NCBI RefSeq assembly: GCF_052324685.1
Contig: NW_027506896.1
Coordinates: 35,001 to 99,000 of the forward strand
Direction of reading: 5' to 3'
DNA length: 64,000 nt
From: Brachyhypopomus gauderio
Taxonomy: Eukaryota; Chordata; Actinopteri; Gymnotiformes; Hypopomidae
Part shown: positions 314-56,000 of the stretch, in pieces
Layout: every line of letters begins with the position of its first letter
Position numbering within the stretch: the first letter of the stretch is position 1
Made by a program: the position numbers and the translations under genes
Notes under the pieces: model-generated
What the model was told of the DNA's origin: nothing
The model's database searches: none
The model's input: only the letters and a program-made list of their open reading frames with translations

Positions 314-23813
<23,500 letters not shown>

Positions 23814-34980: not shown

Positions 34981-37900
34981 CAATTAGCTTTATAACTATG
35001 GAAGATGCTGTTACTTACAAAACCCCTGACCGCCTGAAAGTTATCCACACAACCTGTGACTGCTGAGTCACCAGCGATGTCTACCCACCGACACACAATC
35101 TGGAGATCAAAGCCACGAGTCGTTCTACACCATCAACATCACCACAACCACTGTTGGCATGATGCCACTACAGCCAACAAACAGCACGCTCTGATTGGGT
35201 GCCATCCTTGATTCACACAGAGGATTGGTTGTCCAGCAGCATGACTAACGGGGGTTCGAACCAATAGCCACATGGAACAAATGGCGGCAGGATGGAAAGG
35301 AAGCGGGGGGTGATATTCGAATCAGCTGGGAAGCAGAGAGACACTGAATCCCCTGCTTTCCCCTGCTTGTTTTTCCACCGCCTGGCCCAGCTCCGAGCAG
35401 GCGGCTACCATGTCAGGGGCTCTGGCAAATCATCACTAACGGAAATAATCAGTAATCGATAGCACATGGGTCCTTGGAGATTAGGCAGGAAGGACAGAGT
35501 GTGATTGGGTTTTGAGGCGACCTCCATTAGCCTTTGTGGCCTGAAATGACAGACGACTAAACACTTGGGCCAATCAGATCCTTTAACATTGCCAAAGTCA
35601 AATGGTATTGCATGCAAACCCTCAATGTACCACTTATTAAGTTAGGACAAGGCACAGCACACTGGATGCAAGCAATTTTTCTTCAGAATAGTCACCCACA
35701 TCACTTTTATAACACATTCGCAGAGAATCCTACACTACCGTTGGACATTACAGTGCAGTGATGAATAGGAGAATCGTACACATTGGTCAGTGAGCCTCTT
35801 GGTTGGAGTGTCCGTGTCAGTGTGACAGGTTTTGACCTGTCCATGCTGGTAAATATCACACAGATCAAGTGTTGACAAATTCCTCAGATGTGTAACCAAC
35901 ACACACATTCAGTTTTTTAGAAAACCTACCAAACTGATTGGTATGGTGGGAAACAAACAAAACCGTTGCATTTAGGGTTGGGATGACTGTGACGACCCCT
36001 GCATGGATCATCAGAATGCCTTTCATGCACTCTGAAATTCACACCACTTGCACTTGCAGTAAAATCCTGCTCTTCCAGGAAGAATCTCTGACACACTTTT
36101 AACTGTGGGGTAAACACAGTCCAGTGCCAATATCTGACCACTATGGTTCAAACAATCTGAACATTCTTGCAGGCTCAATGAGAAACATGCTTGAGGATTC
36201 TTCTTCAGTAATTAAGAGCATGTTACATTTGTAACACAGCTCTCTTATCGCCCTCTAGTGGTTGAGTGGTAGTGTGCTCAAGATGGATTTGAGGTCACTG
36301 ATAACTGAAGCAGAGCATACCTTTAGAATCGTACATATTTTATACAATAAACAAATCACTCACAGAAGCATTAAAACAAAATGAATAACACCACCTCAGC
36401 TCAGTTTCCAGGATGCTTCACAACCCAACCGTACGACTTGTGGGTAATATAAAGATCCTATGAGTACCCCAAAGAGACACATTTAAGACAGCTGGCCTCT
36501 TGGCCCCCTGGCTGAGAGGGAGAGGGGGGGACCCACAGATCTGTGCTGTAAAATAAACCTGTGCTCTGCTTGTTTGATTACAGCTGTCTCAGGAAAAATG
36601 GCTCTCGCACGTCGAGCAGTGGACTGCTCCCAGGGAGGGTGACCTCTTTGGGATGAAACCCAAACATGAAGAAATGCCTAGCACGCAACTCTTTGGCTAG
36701 TGGCCCAAACAATCCATTACAGGCACCATGAGGAAATGAGAAGACCTGGCCCAACCACATTAAGGTGGAACGAAACCGTACAAATGGCATGGTAACTTAC
36801 AAACCCTACTAATGGCATGGTAACTTACAATCCCTACTAATGGCATGGTAACTTATAAACCCTACTAATGGCATGGTAACTTACAATCCCTACTAATGGC
36901 ATGGTAACTTATAAACCCTACTAATGGCATGGTAACTTATAAACCCTACTAATGGCATGGTAACTTACAATCCCTACTAATGGCATGGTAACTTACAATC
37001 CCTACTAATGGCATGGTAACTTACAATCCCTACTAATGACATGGTAACTTATAAACCCTACTAATGGCATGGTAACTTATAAACCCTACTAATGCCATAG
37101 TAACTTACAAACCCTACAAATGGCATGGTAACTTACAAATCCTACTAATGACATGGTAACTTATAAACCCTACTAATGTCATGGTAACTTATAAACCCTA
37201 CTAATGGCATGGTAACTTATAAACCCTACTAATGGCATGGTAACTTATAAACCCTACTAATGGCATGGTAACTTACAATCCCTACTAATGGCATGGTAAC
37301 TTACAATCCCTACTAATGGTGTGTTAACCTACAAACCCTACTAATGACATGGTAACTTACAAACCCTACTAATGGCATGGTCACTTACAAACCCTACTAA
37401 TGGCATGGTAACTTATAAACCCTACTAATGGCATGGTAACTTACAAACCCTACTAATGGCATAGTAACTTACAAACCCTATTAATGGCATGGTAACTTAT
37501 AAACCCTACTAATGGCATGGTCATTTACAAACCCTACTAATGGCATGGTAACTTATAAACCCTACTAATGGCATGGTAACTTATAAACCCTACTAATGGC
37601 ATGGTAACTTATAAACCCTACTAATGACATGGTAACTTACAAATCCTACTAATGGCTTGGTAACTTATAAACCCTACTAATGGAATAGTAACTTATAAAC
37701 CCTACTAATGGCATGGTAACTTACAAACCCTACTAATGGCATGGTAACTTATAAACCCTACTAATGGCATGGTAACTTACAAACCCTACTAATGGCATAG
37801 TAACTTACAAACCCTATTAATGGCATGGTAACTTATAAACCCTACTAATGGCATGGTCATTTACAAACCCTACTAATGGCATAGTAACTTATAAACCCTA

Positions 37901-40900
37901 CTAATGGCATGGTAACTTATAAACCCTACTAATGGCATGGTAACTTATAAACCATACTAATGACATGGTAACTTACAAACCCCACTAATGGCATGGTAAC
38001 TTATAAACCCTACTAATGGCATGGTAACTTACAAACCCTACTAATGGCATGGTAACTTATAAACCCTACTAATGGCATGGTAACTTACAATCCCTACTAA
38101 TGACATGGTAACTTATAAACTATACTAATGGCATAGTAACTTACAAATATGTGCCACAGAGGAGGTATGGAATTAAATATATTTAAAGTCTTTCTGAAAT
38201 ACCAAATTACATATTATGAAACTAGATGTTTGGACCACTAAGAGGAGAAGGTAAACAAATGTAATTAACACAAACAATGTTCAGACAGTAAGGGGTGGAG
38301 AAACAGACTATTCAAAGAACTGATCAAATTATCCTAAACTTTGAGAATCATTTACCTTCTTTTGTAGGAAACCAATTTGCTTAAGCCATCCTAGTACATC
38401 ATCTGGCATTTTTTTCATGATCCTCTTTGCCCTCACTCTCTACTTTGTTTTGTCTTTTAGATTTTCCAGTTTTGTTTTACCATGTTTTGGAACTTTTTTT
38501 TAATTTTGACAATCCCTGTTCACAAGGTGTGGGCCGCACAGATGGGCTACCCTTGGCTACAGTGTCAATCTATAGGATGAGTCGGTCAAACAGAGAAGGC
38601 AACAATTAGATTCAGGTTTTATGCCAACACACATTCTGCTCTCTAAGCCTTCTCCTAGATTGGATTTCCATTTCCAAGCATTGGAACGGTGAAAACCCTG
38701 AACCTGATCTCTATGGATCCCATAACCAGTGCTACCTGAGCCAGGCCTGTGGAGAGAAGGTAACTGATAGGCCCTCGGATCGTAAAGAGTGCAAACAGCA
38801 GCATCAGATGCCTCTCACACACACACGCACACGCATACACACACACACACACACACTCAGTAATTAGCTCCCTATTGTTGAGACAGGGTGGATCATTTCT
38901 AGAGATCGGTGGTACCTCAGTCGTCTAACATCATCGAGATACAAGATCCAGACTTCTCCAGATACTTTTATTGCACAGCTGATGAAGGACCTGTCTGAAA
39001 GGTCTTGTTTCTCTGGAAACCTTGTGTGTACCACTGCAATTTTGAGTACACCTACATCATCACCACTCTATGACTAGACATGACATGGTTGTTCTGATTA
39101 CCTCTAAGTCAAAAGCCACCAGCAAGCTACAGTGATTCCAAATTGGTGACTTATGATATTCGAAACCCTAATCGTCATATACCTACTTCGTTTCACTCAC
39201 TATTGGAAAACCACAGTAGAACTGACCCACAGTCAATGCACACATGAAGATAGAGGAATGTTTAGAGTTCAACAGCTGAGGAGTCAGAACACAGTATGCG
39301 GGTTTGTATATCATAAAACCAATTTATGACACATCGTTATAGGGTTGAACTGACATCACATGATCTTCAGCCCTCATATAATCCGAACACATCACTAATT
39401 CTGAATGATCCCCTTGGCACTTGCGCTCTGCACTGGAGAAAATCTGAGACACTACCTATATATCAATCACAGGCTGAGGTTTTATTAGCAGAAACAGCTG
39501 GGAATACAGTTTGTCTCAGGATAATTCTTCCGAATGTACTGTGGATGCACTTATTTTGACACGTAGTAAGAATGGTTCCAAATAATAATAAAAAAAGGTC
39601 ACAGTGGGTTGCAATATATGATAACACATGAGTGTTCCCATGCAGAATAGCCCGTGGGTTTGTGGATGAGCTCCTGAAGTGGACACTGTTTTCCTGTTGG
39701 GTTGAATGTCAGTGCCCTGCCTTGTTCCTTTGCCTCTGATCAACCGGAAAAACATTCATGGCTCAAACTGAAGTACATCTTTCTCACATGTTTAGTTTAA
39801 GGTCTCCTTAGTGACCACTGTGATTGCTCAAATGTCCAGCTCAAAAGCCCCATTTCAGGCATGGTCTGGGCTGTGGATATAAGGCCAAGAACACGAAAGC
39901 TCCCAGAAGGAACGGAGGTGTCAATCAAAACAAGTAGGGTGACCGAGCAGGTAGCCCTGGGGTTGCGGGGTCACAGGGTCACAGGGCAGGAGAAACCGAA
40001 TACTGAGAGTATGAATTCCATACAGGCCATACCTTTAGTGAAACCGATCCAGTTTGGTTGGAGAATGACCCAACACCACCTGATTCTGCTGCTTTTAAAT
40101 TATGTTTTTAAGACTCACGGTTTTTTTGAACATGACCTATGCAGTGGAGATTTTCCCAGTTCTCTATTGTGTTGTGTTGATGTGATCCACTGTTATAATG
40201 TTATATTTTGAAGAACTAAGACAGGCAGCTGGTGGCTTCTGGATGTCTCCACATACGCAGAAATCCCAGTTTAAGCCCATGGTGCTTCTGCAAAGTGTAA
40301 TATTGCATCTGATACTGGGTTAAGGGAATAACACTGCTCTTCGGTCAACACGCCCTAGCAAATGAAATCAAGCTAAAACAGTATCGAGGAATTGATTCAG
40401 AACACAAAATGTGGGGCTGTGTTCAGCAACCCTGCAAGAAAAAAAACAAAAGTCAAAGTAACAGAAGTGAAATCCTTTCTGTTTTAATGAGTGTAGTACA
40501 TTTACATGTAGCAAGCTGTTTTGCCTCATTAAAGAAACAACACTGTTTAAATGACATTACACAGAGTGTAGTAGTTAAATGTGCATGAGGGAAAGAGAGA
40601 AAGTATTAGTATTTAGAACTGTGATACTGTACAAAACCAAAGGTGAACCATCAGGCCAATTAAAAGTGAACATGGGACACCAACAGGAACAACTGATATG
40701 AAAGCACCTCCACCCCAGAACAACAGCTGAGTCCCTCTACGCCAGAATCCGTTTCTGAGTCTCCACACACACACACTGCTAATAAAGGGATTTATTGACA
40801 GACAGATCCAGTGGAAGAGAGAAGAGCAGCATGACTTACATTTCTCTCCACTAGCCGCAGGTACCGGCAGCACTCGTAGTGGCCGTTGTAGTCCGCCAGT

Positions 40901-47024: not shown

Positions 47025-50000
47025 CTACATCTGCTCCAGCTGCTCCACGGCGGCGCGGAGGTCCTCCACCACAGCGTCCACGTCACCACGAGATGTTCTT
47101 CTGCCCACGCTCAACCTCAGGGCATTCACTGCCACGTGGTACGGGACGCCGCAGTTCAGAAGAACGTGTGAAGGCCTGTAAGACACAGATGGACGTTAAG
47201 GAGAAGCTCCATACTGTGTGATAATGATGACCAATGACACCTGCGTTAATGCTTTTCTTTCCAGTTGAGAAAAAAGTTTAAAATGATCAGCAGAGATGCA
47301 TGAAAATCGTACTAGGAGAGGCGGGAGAACCACAGCACAGTGGCGTGATTAGTGTGTGCAGGACACTTACTGATCCCCCCTGGTCAGACTGGTGGGAGAG
47401 TCATGGCACAGTGGCGTGATTAGTGTGTGCAGGACACTTACTGATCCCCCCTGGTCAGACTGGTGGGAGAGTCATGGCACAGGGGCGTGATTAGTGTGTG
47501 CAGGACACTTAATGATCCCCCCTGGTCAGACTGGTGGGACAGTCATGGCACAGTGGCGTGATTAGTGTGTGCAGGACACTTACTGATCCCACCTGATCAG
47601 ACTGGTGGGAGAGTCATGGCACAGGGGCGTGATTAGTGTGTGCAGGACACTAACTGATCCCACCTGGTCAGACTGGTGGGAGAGTCATGACACAGGGGCG
47701 TGATTAGTGTGTGCAGGACACTAACTGATCCCCCCTGGTCAGACTGGTGGGAGAGTCATGGCACAGGGGCGTGATTAGTGTGTGCAGGACACTAACTGAT
47801 CCCCCCTGGTCAGACTGGTGGGAGAGTCATGGCATAGGGGCGTGATTAGTGTGTGCAGGACACTTACTGATCCCCCCTGGTCAAACTGGTGGGAGAGTCA
47901 TGGCACAGGGGCGTGATTAGTGTGTGCAGGACACTAACTGATCCCACCTGGTCAGACTGGTGGGAGAGTCATGACACAGGGGCGTGATTAGTGTGTGCAG
48001 GACACTAACTGATCCCCCCTGGTCAGACTGGTGGGAGAGTCATGGCACAGGGGCGTGATTAGTGTGTGCAGGACACTAACTGATCCCCCCTGGTCAGACT
48101 GGTGGGAGAGTCATGGCACAGGGGCGTGATTAGTGTGTGCAGGACACTTACTGATCCCCCCTGGTCAGATTGGTGGGAGAGTCATGGCACAGGAGCGTGA
48201 TTAGTGTGTGCAGGACACTTAATGATCCCCCCTGGTCAGACTGGTGGGACAGTCATGGCACAGTGGCGTGATTAGTGTGTGCAGGACACTTACTGATCCC
48301 ACCTGATCAGACTGGTGGGAGAGTCATGGCACAGGGGCGTGATTAGTGTGTGCAGGACACTAACTGATCCCACCTGGTCAGACTGGTGGGAGAGTCATGA
48401 CACAGGGGCGTGATTAGTGTGTGCAGGACACTAACTGATCCCCCCTGGTCAGACTGGTGGGAGAGTCATGGCACAGGGGCGTGATTAGTGTGTGCAGGAC
48501 ACTAACTGATCCCCCCTGGTCAGACTGGTGGGAGAGTCATGGCATAGGGGCGTGATTAGTGTGTGCAGGACACTTACTGATCCCCCCTGGTCAAACTGGT
48601 GGGAGAGTCATGGCACAGGGGCGTGATTAGTGTGTGCAGGACACTAACTGATCCCACCTGGTCAGACTGGTGGGAGAGTCATGACACAGGGGCGTGATTA
48701 GTGTGTGCAGGACACTAACTGATCCCCCCTGGTCAGACTGGTGGGAGAGTCATGGCACAGGGGCGTGATTAGTGTGTGCAGGACACTAACTGATCCCCCC
48801 TGGTCAGACTGGTGGGAGAGTCATGGCACAGGGGCGTGATTAGTGTGTGCAGGACACTTACTGATCCCACCTGATCAGACTGGTGGGAGAGTCATGGCAC
48901 AGGGGCGTGATTAGTGTGTGCAGGACACTTACTGATCCCCCCTGATCAGACTGGTGGGAGAGTCATGGCACAGGGGCGTGATTAGTGTGTGCAGGACACT
49001 TACTGATCCCCCCTGGTCAAACTGGTGGGAGAGTCATGGCACAGGGGCGTGATTAGTGTGTGCAGGACACTAACTGATCCCACCTGGTCAGACTGGTGGG
49101 AGAGTCATGGCACAGGGGCGTGATTAGTGTGTGCAGGACACTAACTGATCCCCCCTGGTCAGACTGGTGGGAGAGTCATGGCACAGGGGCGTGATTAGTG
49201 TGTGCAGGACACTTACTGATCCCCCCTGGTCAGATTGGTGGGAGAGTCATGGCACAGGAGCGTGATTAGTGTGTGCAGGACACTTAATGATCCCCCCTGG
49301 TCAGACTGGTGGGACAGTCATGGCACAGTGGCGTGATTAGTGTGTGCAGGACACTAACTGATCCCACCTGGTCAGATTGGTGGGAGAGTCATGGCACAGG
49401 GGCGTGATTAGTGTGTGCAGGACACTAACTGATCCCCCCTGATCAGACTGGTGGGAGAGTCATGGCACAGGGGCGTGATTAGTGTGTGCAGGACACTAAC
49501 TGATCCCACCTGGTCAGACTGGTGGGAGAACCACAGCACAGGGGCGTGATTAGTGTGTGCAGGACACTTACTGATCCCCCCTGGTCAAACTGGTGGGAGA
49601 GTCATGGCACAGGGGCGTGATTAGTGTGTGCAGGACACTTACTGATCCCCCCTGGTCAGACTGGTGGGAGAGTCATGGCACAGGGGCGTGATTAGTGTGT
49701 GCAGGACACTTACTGATCCCCCCTGGTCAGATTGGTGGGAGAGTCATGGCACAGGAGCGTGATTAGTGTGTGCAGGACACTTAATGATCCCCCCTGGTCA
49801 GACTGGTGGGACAGTCATGGCACAGTGGCGTGATTAGTGTGTGCAGGACACTAACTGATCCCACCTGGTCAGATTGGTGGGAGAGTCATGGCACAGGGGC
49901 GTGATTAGTGTGTGCAGGACACTAACTGATCCCCCCTGATCAGACTGGTGGGAGAGTCATGGCACAGGGGCGTGATTAGTGTGTGCAGGACACTAACTGA

Positions 50001-53000
50001 TCCCACCTGGTCAGACTGGTGGGAGAGTCATGGCACAGGGGCGTGATTAGTGTGTGCAGGACACTAATTGATCCCCCCTGGTCAGACTGGTGGGAGAGTC
50101 ATGGCACAGGGGCGTGATTAGTGTGTGCAGGACACTAACTGATCCCCCCTGGTCAGACTGGTGGGAGAGTCATGGCACAGGGGCGTGATTAGTAGTGTGT
50201 GCAGGACACTTACTGATCCCCCCTGGTCAGACTGGTGGGAGAGTCATGGCACAGGGGCGTGATTAGTGTGTGCAGGACACTTACTGATCCCCCCTGGTCA
50301 GACTGGTGGGAGAGTCATGGCACAGGGGCGTGATTAGTGTGTGCAGGACACTAACTGATCCCCCCTGGTCAGACTGGTGGGAGAGTCATGGCACAGGGGC
50401 GTGATTAGTGTGTGCAGGACACTTACTGATCCCCCCTGGTCAGATTGGTGGGAGAGTCATGGCACAGGAGCGTGATTAGTGTGTGCAGGACACTTAATGA
50501 TCCCCCCTGGTCAGACTGGTGGGACAGTCATGGCACAGTGGCGTGATTAGTGTGTGCAGGACACTAACTGATCCCACCTGGTCAGATTGGTGGGAGAGTC
50601 ATGGCACAGGGGCGTGATTAGTGTGTGCAGGACACTAACTGATCCCCCTGGTCAGACTGGTGGGAGAACCACAGCACAGGGGCGTGATTAGTGTGTGCAG
50701 GACACTTACTGATCCCCCCTGGTCAGACTGGTGGGAGAGTCATGGCACAGGGGCGTGATTAGTGTGTGCAGGACACTAATTGATCCCCCTGGTCAGACTG
50801 GTGGGAGAGTCATGGCACAGGGGCATGATTAGTGTGTGCAGGACACTAACTGATCCCCCCTGGTCAGACTGGTGGGAGAGTCATGGCACAGGGGCGTGAT
50901 TAGTGTGTGCAGGACACTAACTGATCCCCCCTGGTCAGACTGGTGGGAGAGTCATGGCACAGGGGCGTGATTAGTAGTGTGTGCAGGACACTTACTGATC
51001 CCCCCTGGTCAGACTGGTGGGAGAGTCATGGCACAGGGGCGTGATTAGTGTGTGCAGGACACTTACTGATCCCCCCTGGTCAGACTGGTGGGAGAGTCAT
51101 GGCACAGGGGCGTGATTAGTGTGTGCAGGACACTAACTGATCCCCCCTGGTCAGACTGGTGGGAGAGTTATGGCACAGGGGCGTGATTAGTGTGTGCAGG
51201 ACACTTACTGATCCCCCCTGGTCAGATTGGTGGGAGAGTCATGGCACAGGAGCGTGATTAGTGTGTGCAGGACACTTAATGATCCCCCCTGGTCAGACTG
51301 GTGGGACAGTCATGGCACAGTGGCGTGATTAGTGTGTGCAGGACACTAACTGATCCCACCTGGTCAGATTGGTGGGAGAGTCATGGCACAGGGGCGTGAT
51401 TAGTGTGTGCAGGACACTAACTGATCCCCCCTGATCAGACTGGTGGGAGAGTCATGGCACAGGGGCGTGATTAGTGTGTGCAGGACACTAACTGATCCCA
51501 CCTGGTCAGACTGGTGGGAGAACCACAGCACAGGGGCGTGATTAGTGTGTGCAGGACACTTACTGATCCCCCCTGGTCAAACTGGTGGGAGAGTCATGGC
51601 ACAGGGGCGTGATTAGTGTGTGCAGGACACTTACTGATCCCCCCTGATCAGACTGGTGGGAGAGTCATGGCACAGGGGCGTGATTAGTGTGTGCAGGACA
51701 CTTACTGATCCCCCCTGATCAGACTGGTGGGAGAGTCATGGCACAGGGGCGTGATTAGTGTGTGCAGGACACTAACTGATCCCACCTGGTCAGACTGGTG
51801 GGAGAGTCATGGCACAGGGGCGTGATTAGTGTGTGCAGGACACTAACTGATCCCACCTGGTCAGGCTGGTGGGAGAACCACAGCACAGGGGCGTGATTAG
51901 TGTGTGCCGGACACTAAAGGACATTTCCACACGGGCCTGCTTGGGACGGTACGGTTCGATACAGATCGATTCGCAACGGAGCGGTACGGTCGCGTTGTAT
52001 TTCCATTACAATGGTGGACCACCACAATGTGGGTGGAGTCACTGTTGGCGCGCGGGTTGTAGTGTCGTGACATCATTTGTATGCGACCACAACACACAGA
52101 ACAGACTTTTGGTCCTCCATGCTTCTCTCCTTGGGTTTTAAAAATGGCGGAGGAGTTGATAGCTCTCCTGTGACGCATCCTGTGACGACACTCCCTGGCC
52201 AATCAGTGTCATGCTGTTCCTCCTCGTCACAGAACTTTACCGCTTTGGAACGGTTAGAACCTCGAGCGAGTAGGTACGAAAAAAGTACCTGAAGGTATCG
52301 GCAAACTTGTACCTGGTACTAATGGAAACACTCACAAACCGTCGCGAATCGAACCGTACCGCGCCAAGCAGGCCCGTGTGGAAATGCGCCATAACTGATC
52401 CCCCCTGGTCAGACTGGTAGGAGAGTCATGACACAGGGGCGTGATTAGTGTGTGCAGGACACTTACTGATCCCCCCTGGTCAGACTGGTGGGAGAGTCAT
52501 GGCACAGGGGCGTGATTAGTGTGTGCAGGACACTTACTGATCCCCCCTGGTCAGACTGGTGGGAGAGTCATGGCACAGGGGCGTGATTAGTGTGTGCAGG
52601 ACACTAATTGATCCCCCTGGTCAGACTGGTGGGAGAGTCATGGCACAGGGGCATGATTAGTGTGTGCAGGACACTAACTGATCCCCCTGGTCAGACTGGT
52701 GGGAGAGTCATGGCACAGGGGCGTGATTAGTGTGTGCAGGACACTAACTGATCCCACCTGGTCAGACTGGTGGGAGAGTCATGGCACAGGGGCGTGATTA
52801 GTGTGTGCAGGACACTAACTGATCCCCCCTGGTCAGACTGGTGGGAGAGTCATGGCACAGGGGCGTGATTAGTGTGTGCAGGACACTTACTGATCCCCCC
52901 TGGTCAGATTGGTGGGAGAGTCATGGCACAGGAGCGTGATTAGTGTGTGCAGGACACTTAATGATCCCCCCTGGTCAGACTGGTGGGACAGTCATGGCAC

Positions 53001-56000
53001 AGTGGCGTGATTAGTGTGTGCAGGACACTAACTGATCCCACCTGGTCAGATTGGTGGGAGAGTCATGGCACAGGGGCGTGATTAGTGTGTGCAGGACACT
53101 AACTGATCCCCCTGGTCAGACTGGTGGGAGAGTCATGGCACAGGGGCGTGATTAGTGTGTGCAGGACACTAACTGATCCCCCCTGGTCAGACTGGTGGGA
53201 GAGTCATGGCACAGGGGCGTGATTAGTAGTGTGTGCAGGACACTTACTGATCCCCCCTGGTCAGACTGGTGGGAGAGTCATGGCACAGGGGCGTGATTAG
53301 TGTGTGCAGGACACTTACTGATCCCCCCTGGTCAGACTGGTGGGAGAGTCATGGCACAGGGGCGTGATTAGTGTGTGCAGGACACTAACTGATCCCCCCT
53401 GGTCAGACTGGTGGGAGAGTCATGGCACAGGGGCGTGATTAGTGTGTGCAGGACACTTACTGATCCCCCCTGGTCAGATTGGTGGGAGAGTCATGGCACA
53501 GGAGCGTGATTAGTGTGTGCAGGACACTTAATGATCCCCCCTGGTCAGACTGGTGGGACAGTCATGGCACAGTGGCGTGATTAGTGTGTGCAGGACACTA
53601 ACTGATCCCACCTGGTCAGATTGGTGGGAGAGTCATGGCACAGGGGCGTGATTAGTGTGTGCAGGACACTAACTGATCCCCCTGGTCAGACTGGTGGGAG
53701 AACCACAGCACAGGGGCGTGATTAGTGTGTGCAGGACACTTACTGATCCCCCCTGGTCAGACTGGTGGGAGAGTCATGGCACAGGGGCGTGATTAGTGTG
53801 TGCAGGACACTAATTGATCCCCCTGGTCAGACTGGTGGGAGAGTCATGGCACAGGGGCATGATTAGTGTGTGCAGGACACTAACTGATCCCCCCTGGTCA
53901 GACTGGTGGGAGAGTCATGGCACAGGGGCGTGATTAGTGTGTGCAGGACACTAACTGATCCCCCCTGGTCAGACTGGTGGGAGAGTCATGGCACAGGGGC
54001 GTGATTAGTAGTGTGTGCAGGACACTTACTGATCCCCCCTGGTCAGACTGGTGGGAGAGTCATGGCACAGGGGCGTGATTAGTGTGTGCAGGACACTTAC
54101 TGATCCCCCCTGGTCAGACTGGTGGGAGAGTCATGGCACAGGGGCGTGATTAGTGTGTGCAGGACACTAACTGATCCCCCCTGGTCAGACTGGTGGGAGA
54201 GTCATGGCACAGGGGCGTGATTAGTGTGTGCAGGACACTTACTGATCCCCCCTGGTCAGATTGGTGGGAGAGTCATGGCACAGGAGCGTGATTAGTGTGT
54301 GCAGGACACTTAATGATCCCCCCTGGTCAGACTGGTGGGACAGTCATGGCACAGTGGCGTGATTAGTGTGTGCAGGACACTAACTGATCCCACCTGGTCA
54401 GATTGGTGGGAGAGTCATGGCACAGGGGCGTGATTAGTGTGTGCAGGACACTAACTGATCCCCCCCTGATCAGACTGGTGGGAGAGTCATGGCACAGGGG
54501 CGTGATTAGTGTGTGCAGGACACTTACTGATCCCCCTGGTCAGACTGGTGGGAGAACCACAGCACAGGGGCGTGATTAGTGTGTGCAGGACACTTACTGA
54601 TCCCCCCTGGTCAGACTGGTGGGAGAGTCATGGCACAGGGGCGTGATTAGTGTGTGCAGGACACTAATTGATCCCCCTGGTCAGACTGGTGGGAGAGTCA
54701 TGGCACAGGGGCATGATTAGTGTGTGCAGGACACTAACTGATCCCCCTGGTCAGACTGGTGGGAGAGTCATGGCACAGGGGCGTGATTAGTGTGTGCAGG
54801 ACACTAACTGATCCCCCCTGGTCAGACTGGTGGGAGAGTCATGGCACAGGGGCGTGATTAGTAGTGTGTGCAGGACACTTACTGATCCCCCCTGGTCAGA
54901 CTGGTGGGAGAGTCATGGCACAGGGGCATGATTAGTGTGTGCAGGACACTAACTGATCCCCCTGGTCAGACTGGTGGGAGAGTCATGGCACAGGGGCGTG
55001 ATTAGTGTGTGCAGGACACTAACTGATCCCCCCTGGTCAGACTGGTGGGAGAGTCATGGCACAGGGGCGTGATTAGTAGTGTGTGCAGGACACTTACTGA
55101 TCCCCCCTGGTCAGACTGGTGGGAGAGTCATGGCACAGGGGCATGATTAGTGTGTGCAGGACACTTACTGATCCCCCCGGTTGGAGTGGCAGGCAGCTCC
55201 CACGCTGGCCAACAGTCTCTTGCAGGTGGACAGCACGCGGTGGCCTGCAGCATTGAGCCTTGTGTTAATTATTCAGCAGAGCTATTGTGTTTTACAAATG
55301 GCTGTGGTGAAGCCCTGACCCAGTTTTGTTCTGTGCACAGGACAGATGTGGAAAAAGCTTCACTATGCAAGCTGGTCATTCCTAGGCATGGTATTAGCTT
55401 CCATTGCTACGCAGATGATCTATACAACTGAGTATCTTCCAATCTGGATGATATTACTACTACTCACAAGACTGAGAACTGCATCCAGGACATTAAAAAC
55501 TGGATGGCATCTAATTTTCTTTAACTAAATTCCGATAAGACTGAGGTGCTGATTCTTGGGCCCAAAGCTACTAGAAGCAATTGGGCTGATATTCCCCTCA
55601 CCCTAGATGGTTTTTCAGTAACACCTAAATCTACTACAAAAAGCTTAGGTGTGACTATTGATTTGGATCTTTCATTTGACACATAAATATGCATTATCAC
55701 TACGGCTGCTTTTGTTACTTTCGTTAGCTAATGCAGAGAAGCTGGTCCATGCTTTTGTCTCGTCGAGATTGGACTACTGTAATGGTCTTCTAATTGTATG
55801 CTCTAAACAGTCCATAAAGAAACTACAACTTGTACAAAATGCTGCAGCTAGAGTCCTAACTAAGGCTAGAAAATTTGATCATATTAGTCCCACTCTCACA
55901 GTATTACGCTAGCTTCCGATTATATATTGAATTTAATTTAAAATTCTTGTTGACCTATAAGGCGTTAACTGGTATTGCTCCACAATATCTGAGTGAACTC

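What the first reader, a model, noticed from the sequence alone, without database searches (positions are those of the whole stretch)
47316..55244. 71-bp array seeded on the splice donor of the scly catalytic-cysteine exon
scly exon 11 encodes the catalytic Cys loop (SVGAACHSN) and ends GGGGGGATCA|GTAAGTG. The array in the following 8-kb intron begins at that junction. Every unit carries GGGGGGATCA followed by GTAAGTG, GTTAGTG or ATTAAGTG on the transcribed strand, and upstream exon bases also align loosely (GCCACTCCAACC against ACCAGTCTGACC). This suggests the array grew from a duplicated exon end plus 5' splice site, leaving of the order of 100 decoy donors in one intron.
Basis: partly seen in the sequence, partly recalled or inferred. 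Interest (0 to 1): 0.8.

Follow-up and report, generated by a model that had tools for sequence, protein, structure and literature searches.

The report
Splice-donor copies fill a fish intron
In an electric knifefish, a short stretch spanning the end of one gene exon and its splice signal seems to have been copied in tandem about a hundred times, filling the next intron with spare copies of the signal; a human gene is reported to have a repeat of this kind, so this looks like a large example of something known.

Summary
The window is Brachyhypopomus gauderio scly (minus strand); my 12-exon model equals the database protein, 435/435 aa. Exon 11 is 55169-55244 and intron 11 is 47176-55168 (7,993 bp). 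Apart from one inserted element, a 71-bp array fills that intron except its last 144 bp. The array contains the true donor and runs 10 nt into the exon (GGGGGGATCA).

The full 10-nt exon match is in 71 of 103 units. Of 103 non-authentic sites, 38 have the true donor's 9-mer, 50 a weaker GTT form, 14 no GT and 1 is broken by the insert. The looser upstream match is not significant against the present exon (P 0.05-0.31).

It reaches P about 0.01-0.05 when the exon's Asn codon is set to the Asp of most close relatives, and 103 of 103 units carry that Asp base. I favour a founding duplication of about 19 exon plus 51 intron nt, then expansion, without function. Decoy use would add an immediate stop.

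The closest precedent is the IFI6 (6-16) minisatellite. No relative's intron and no RNA could be examined.

The parts
55169..55244 (-). scly exon 11 (76 nt), [26 protein letters not shown]; its last 10 nt (55169-55178, GGGGGGATCA) are shared with array units
   Evidence: gene model identical to database protein P0001, 435/435 aa; coordinates; match to solved selenocysteine lyases
55163..55171 (-). authentic 5' splice site TCA|GTAAGT of exon 11
47176..55168 (-). scly intron 11, 7,993 bp, phase 2
47320..55178 (-). 71-bp tandem array; TRF core 47335-55178; terminal partial unit 47320-47370 is a 51-nt intron head ending TTCTCCCGCC
55097..55097 (-). first intron base of the nearest decoy donor, 71 nt downstream of the true one, same TCA|GTAAGT
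47370..47370 (-). first intron base of the last decoy donor (GTAAGTG), nearest the acceptor
51919..52390 (-). ~472-bp element with inverted ends (CATTTCCACACGGGCCTGCTTGG near both ends) inserted at a TTA in one array unit; limits approximate
47176..47319 (-). 144 bp of non-repeated intron 11 before the acceptor
47025..47175 (-). coding part of scly exon 12 ([10 protein letters not shown]...EQLEQM, stop)

Best explanation
The array is a minisatellite founded by a tandem duplication across the exon 11 / intron 11 junction. About 19 nt of exon tail plus 51 nt of intron head were joined at a shared GCC; with one inserted A this makes the 71-bp unit. The unit was then amplified, partly in blocks of up to 14 units, taking an intron of about 195 bp to 8 kb. 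Each unit thus inherited the exon's last bases and its 5' splice site. Of the 103 copies, 38 still equal the true donor over the 9-nt site, 50 changed to the weaker GTT form and 15 have no GT or are broken. I infer that the cell splices from the outermost, true donor and that the array is neutral baggage. Using any decoy or retaining the intron adds Gln then TAA, ending the protein at residue 386 of 435, a likely nonsense-mediated-decay target. Shown: gene, junction, unit counts, 10-nt exon match, Asp-state base, stop codon. Inferred: founding event, use of the true donor, neutrality.
For: The exon-unit match runs from the donor 10 nt into the exon in 71 of 103 units, and that 10-mer is absent from the rest of the window. 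The exon tail encodes GDQ in 22 of 23 close relatives with the motif (GDR in one), so it predates the array. All 103 units carry G at the base that is A in the exon. In those 23 relatives the codon is Asp in 21 and Gly in 2, never Asn; the 24th, P0012, lacks the motif. Setting Asp lowers P for the upstream similarity from 0.05-0.31 to 0.01-0.05. The terminal unit breaks after TTCTCCCGCC, 51 nt from its donor, and the exon holds GCC where a 19-nt tail would start. Exact blocks of 14, 9, 8, 7 and 6 units recur. Reading past the donor gives GDQ-stop. The database protein equals the true-donor splice.
Against: No relative's intron could be read, so age and ancestral state are inferred from proteins only, and some of the 23 relatives are the same or closely related species. 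Upstream of the 10-mer the exon and unit differ at 2 of 9 bases plus one indel even with Asp set (3 of 9 with the present exon), and P is only about 0.01-0.05 after I chose that state. At least 6 more distant fish proteins also read Asn. Another array in the window (28 bp, 36773-38147) carries 22 GTAAGT on the same strand although I recognised no exon at its upstream edge (373 bp looked at), so donor-like motifs in arrays can arise otherwise. Copies of the unit elsewhere in the genome could not be sought.
Confidence: 0.8

Rival explanations
1. A dispersed satellite or transposon-borne repeat landed in intron 11 and by chance, or by gene conversion, came to abut the donor and match the exon's last bases.
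For: The window is rich in minisatellites (TRF rows for 12-, 24-, 28-, 36- and 71-bp arrays), and one transposon-like element lies inside the array. Copies elsewhere in the genome could not be sought.
Against: The 10-mer and 17-mer do not occur elsewhere in the window. The match is to coding sequence conserved in relatives and includes an ancestral-looking Asp base in 103 of 103 units. Matching 10 consecutive exon bases at the boundary by chance is about one in a million at equal base frequencies (my arithmetic).
Confidence: 0.1
2. The array is a functional splicing regulator: 38 donors with the same 9-mer compete with the true one, and array length sets how much SCLY mRNA is productive versus truncated and degraded.
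For: 38 decoys share the 9-nt donor, the nearest 71 nt downstream, and reading past the true donor gives an immediate stop. IFI6 is a precedent for repeat units being used as donors (introduction of PMC4526556), and a C. elegans intronic minisatellite is enriched near alternatively spliced regions (abstract of PMC4039745).
Against: Among the 120 proteins listed, one is named for this species and it is the true-donor product (the database is clustered at 90%, so isoforms could be hidden). 65 of 103 copies have lost or weakened the donor, as expected without constraint. No RNA data could be examined.
Confidence: 0.1
3. The resemblance is chance: an ordinary intronic minisatellite that happens to begin at the exon end.
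For: The upstream similarity alone is not significant with the present exon (P 0.05-0.31); the 28-bp array also carries donor-like hexamers.
Against: The 10-nt exonic run, its absence elsewhere in the window and the Asp-state base.
Confidence: 0.05

Closest known systems
IFI6 (6-16, G1P3) minisatellite with multiple splice donors, Turri, Cuin and Porter 1995 (title seen in the reference lists of PMC2572611 and PMC4526556; the paper itself is not held)
   Same: A minisatellite that, by its title, provides multiple splice donor sites; a passage in the PMC4526556 introduction says two downstream repeat units serve as splice donors.
   Different: IFI6 repeats are short and few (recalled) and their donors are used. 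Here the unit is 71 bp, there are 103 further copies across 8 kb, and decoy use would give an immediate stop. Use is untested here.
CeRep25B minisatellite in C. elegans introns (PMC4039745; abstract and passages read)
   Same: An intronic minisatellite linked to splicing choice by position.
   Different: It is dispersed over many introns and its motifs are described as regulatory elements; the words 'donor' and '5 splice site' do not occur in the main text. The scly array is at one place in this window and carries the donor itself.
Intron gain by tandem genomic duplication (potato RdRp, PMC4974935; Drosophila, PMC2891723; search listing and start of abstracts seen)
   Same: A tandem duplication within a gene bears on intron structure.
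   Different: There duplication creates a new intron; here, as I read it, an existing intron was enlarged.
Ordinary intronic minisatellite / VNTR
   Same: Period, multi-unit block duplications and near-identical units.
   Different: The unit includes coding exon bases and a copy of the authentic donor.

Membership tests
Minisatellite providing multiple splice donors (IFI6 type) | Repeat unit spans the exon-intron boundary and contains the donor | tested here: met
   71 of 103 units share 10 exon nt with the junction, and 38 of 103 the 9-nt donor
Minisatellite providing multiple splice donors (IFI6 type) | Several repeat donors are used in mature transcripts | not testable with these tools
   No RNA data; the one protein listed for this species is the true-donor form
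Minisatellite / tandem array | Head-to-tail near-identical units of 10-100 bp | tested here: met
   TRF period 71, 110.6 copies, 88% matches; 84 of 103 spacings between donor-register sites are 71 bp
Intron gain by tandem duplication | A new intron position absent from relatives | not tested
   Intron positions of relatives were not available. The protein is continuous across the boundary with solved selenocysteine lyase 3gzc_A
Dispersed satellite family | Copies at unrelated loci | tested here: inconclusive
   None elsewhere in the 64-kb window; the whole genome was unanswered

The most novel reading that the evidence does not exclude
The array works as a length-dependent brake on scly: dozens of donors with the authentic 9-mer recruit U1 along 8 kb and divert a share of transcripts into a GDQ-stop product. 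The drift to GTT, which weakens U1 pairing and completes a hairpin over the donor, would then be selected compensation rather than neutral decay.
Probability: 0.08. Interest if true: 0.65.

Novelty: new member of a known kind. Interest (0 to 1): 0.42.

Why it matters
It is a natural test of how the splicing machinery picks one 5' splice site among 39 with the same 9-nt site in one intron, where a wrong choice is scored by an immediate stop codon. It also suggests how an intron can grow from about 200 bp to 8 kb by amplifying its own exon boundary, with the array keeping what looks like an older state of the exon. If only the true donor is used, that argues that exon-side context or position, not the 9-nt site, decides.

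Tried and rejected
Searching the fish's whole genome for the unit was tried five times and never answered. Open reading frames in the array: the three of 90 aa or more overlap the inserted element or exon 11, so I did not search array-encoded peptides. RNA families: 0 matches in the window at gathering scores. Local-folding accessibility as the reason the true donor wins was rejected: the true donor's 9 nt are unpaired with P 0.005, below the median of the GTAAGT sites (0.022), although GTT sites are lower still (0.0024). Conversion of the exon by the array was rejected because the exon tail codes for residues conserved in relatives. The idea that the loose upstream match is evidence by itself was rejected. 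A microexon from the ACCAG| acceptor-like site seen in the unit was considered; with the unit's donor it would be 18 nt and in frame (my count), but nothing found speaks for or against it.

Full report
IDENTITY. The minus strand of the window encodes selenocysteine lyase. A 12-exon model that I assembled from the window matches a database protein named selenocysteine lyase [Brachyhypopomus gauderio] at 100% over 435 aa. The last two exons match solved selenocysteine lyases, best 3gzc_A, E 9.4e-26. B. gauderio is a gymnotiform. Exon 11 is 55169-55244, intron 11 is 47176-55168 (7,993 bp), and exon 12 begins at 47175.

ARRAY. TRF reports period 71, 110.6 copies, at 47335-55178. Exact 15-base anchors give 103 copies; 83 of the 102 spacings are 71 bp, 11 are 70, 6 are 74, 1 is 72 and 1 is 619. 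Counting donor-register sites instead gives 104 including the true one, with 84 of 103 spacings at 71 bp and one gap of 548 bp. That gap holds an inserted element of about 472 bp (51919-52390) with inverted ends at a TTA. There are 31 distinct unit sequences among the 104. Exact blocks of 14, 9, 8, 7 and 6 units recur, so growth was partly by multi-unit duplication.

DONORS. Of the 104 sites, 39 read TCA|GTAAGT (one is authentic), 50 TCA|GTTAGT, 9 TTAAGT, 5 ATTAGT and 1 is broken by the insert. With a recalled weight matrix and U1 end, GTAAGT scores 1.46 (U1 duplex -7.5 kcal/mol) and GTTAGT scores -2.57 (-3.6). The other ten scly donors score 0.02 to 7.31, so the true donor is itself not strong. 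T at +3 is not fatal in itself: exon 6 of this gene uses AAG|GTTAGG. The site nearest the true donor (55097) and the two nearest the acceptor are GTAAGT, which suggests that GTAAGT is ancestral and GTT derived. GTTAGTGT pairs with the ACACTAAT that follows it (8 pairs, one of them G-U, 7-nt loop), so the A-to-T change both weakens U1 pairing and completes an inverted repeat. Copying from the facing arm could explain it; that is inference.

IS THE EXON TAIL IN THE UNIT? The run shared with the exon leftward from the donor is 10 nt in 71 of 103 units, 9 in 11 and 7 in 21. GGGGGGATCA is absent from the rest of the window, and the 17-mer is absent even with 2 mismatches. The exon bases encode G-D-Q. 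Of 1,936 proteins found, 120 are listed, and 114 of these have the [AS]VGA[AS]C motif. The 23 closest with it (P0002-P0025 without P0012) end GDQ in 22 and GDR in 1; over all 114 the commonest single form is CHSDSGNRP, 26. The exon is therefore the source, not the copy.

THE ASP BASE. B. gauderio reads CHSNRGDQ. Of the 23 relatives above, 21 read Asp and 2 Gly at the N position, none Asn; P0012 lacks exon 11. Elsewhere in the 114 at least 6 others read Asn (the call printed the 40 commonest patterns, which cover 111 of 114 by my count). All 103 units carry G at the aligned base (87 TCTGACC, 10 TCTGATC, 5 TTTGACC, 1 CCTGACC), the first base of an Asp codon, where the exon has A. With the present exon the upstream similarity is not significant (P 0.12-0.31 shuffles, 0.05-0.14 local DNA). 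With the Asp codon it is 0.017-0.048 and 0.012-0.033, and a fixed 9-mer test gives 0.0096 (Asn: 0.056). I chose the Asp state after seeing the relatives, so these values are supportive, not decisive.

FOUNDER MODEL. The acceptor-side partial unit runs 51 nt from its donor (47370) to TTCTCCCGCC at 47320 and then becomes ordinary intron. The exon holds GCC just before ACTCC(G/A)ACCGGGGGGATCA (19 nt). Joining them with the Asp state predicts a junction from which the modern unit differs by three substitutions and one inserted A; the Asp base itself is a fourth difference from the present exon. 51+19+1 = 71. The intron without the array would be 144+51 = 195 bp. A random 70-bp duplication there would span the junction about one time in four, so no targeting need be assumed.

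CONSEQUENCE. Reading past the true donor gives ...NRGDQ-stop at once, losing residues 387-435. For the nearest decoy the stop lies 67 nt before the new junction, and farther for the others, so decay is expected (rule recalled). The donor 9-mer cannot be what distinguishes the true site, since 38 decoys share it. Exon-side sequence or position must decide, if indeed only the true site is used. The one protein listed for this species is the true-donor form, but it may be an automatic prediction and the database is clustered at 90%. Electrophorus has a predicted isoform lacking exon 11 (P0012).

CONTROLS. A 28-bp array (36773-38147) in the same window carries 22 GTAAGT and 24 ATAAGT on the same strand, and I recognised no exon at its upstream edge in the 373 bp I looked at, though a short open stretch ([18 protein letters not shown], before a GTAAATG) lies about 200 bp away. 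Donor-like hexamers in arrays are therefore not proof of seeding. The 24- and 12-bp arrays carry no GTRAGT on either strand, and the 36-bp array carries 6 on the plus strand only.

LITERATURE. [quoted passage not shown] I saw its title in two reference lists and one introduction passage; the paper is not held. A C. elegans study links the intronic minisatellite CeRep25B to multiple splicing decisions (PMC4039745, abstract and passages). Searches with terms on minisatellites, donors, intron gain or expansion, on Brachyhypopomus and on selenocysteine lyase with repeats (10 of 429 listed) listed nothing on this array; only listings were seen for most of them. I file this as a new member of the IFI6 kind by anatomy; donor use, its second defining feature, is untested.

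Noticed in passing
51919-52390: A ~472-bp element with inverted ends CATTTCCACACGGGCCTGCTTGG inserted at TTA inside one array unit; PIF/Harbinger-like by recall of the TTA target, not tested. The array around it should be older than the insertion.
   Followed up: partly
36773-38147: A 28-bp array (49.1 copies) whose minus strand holds 22 GTAAGT and 24 ATAAGT, with no exon recognised at its upstream edge.
   Followed up: partly
47320-55178: The commonest donor change (GTAAGT to GTTAGT) completes an 8-pair hairpin GTTAGTGT/ACACTAAT over the donor; possibly a templated (quasi-palindrome) mutation.
   Followed up: partly
14814-16669: A 12-bp array, 154.7 copies, open in several frames on both strands (ORFs of 630-674 aa); likely meaningless repeats.
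   Followed up: no
25072-46058: Minus-strand ORFs with ankyrin-like and kelch/BTB-like sequence lie downstream of scly (by eye); by recall this resembles the human SCLY-ESPNL-KLHL30 order. Not tested.
   Followed up: no
P0012 (Electrophorus electricus): A predicted scly isoform lacks exon 11 and has KLLRFFLICVLAR before PSHVLL; a prediction artefact or an alternative exon.
   Followed up: no
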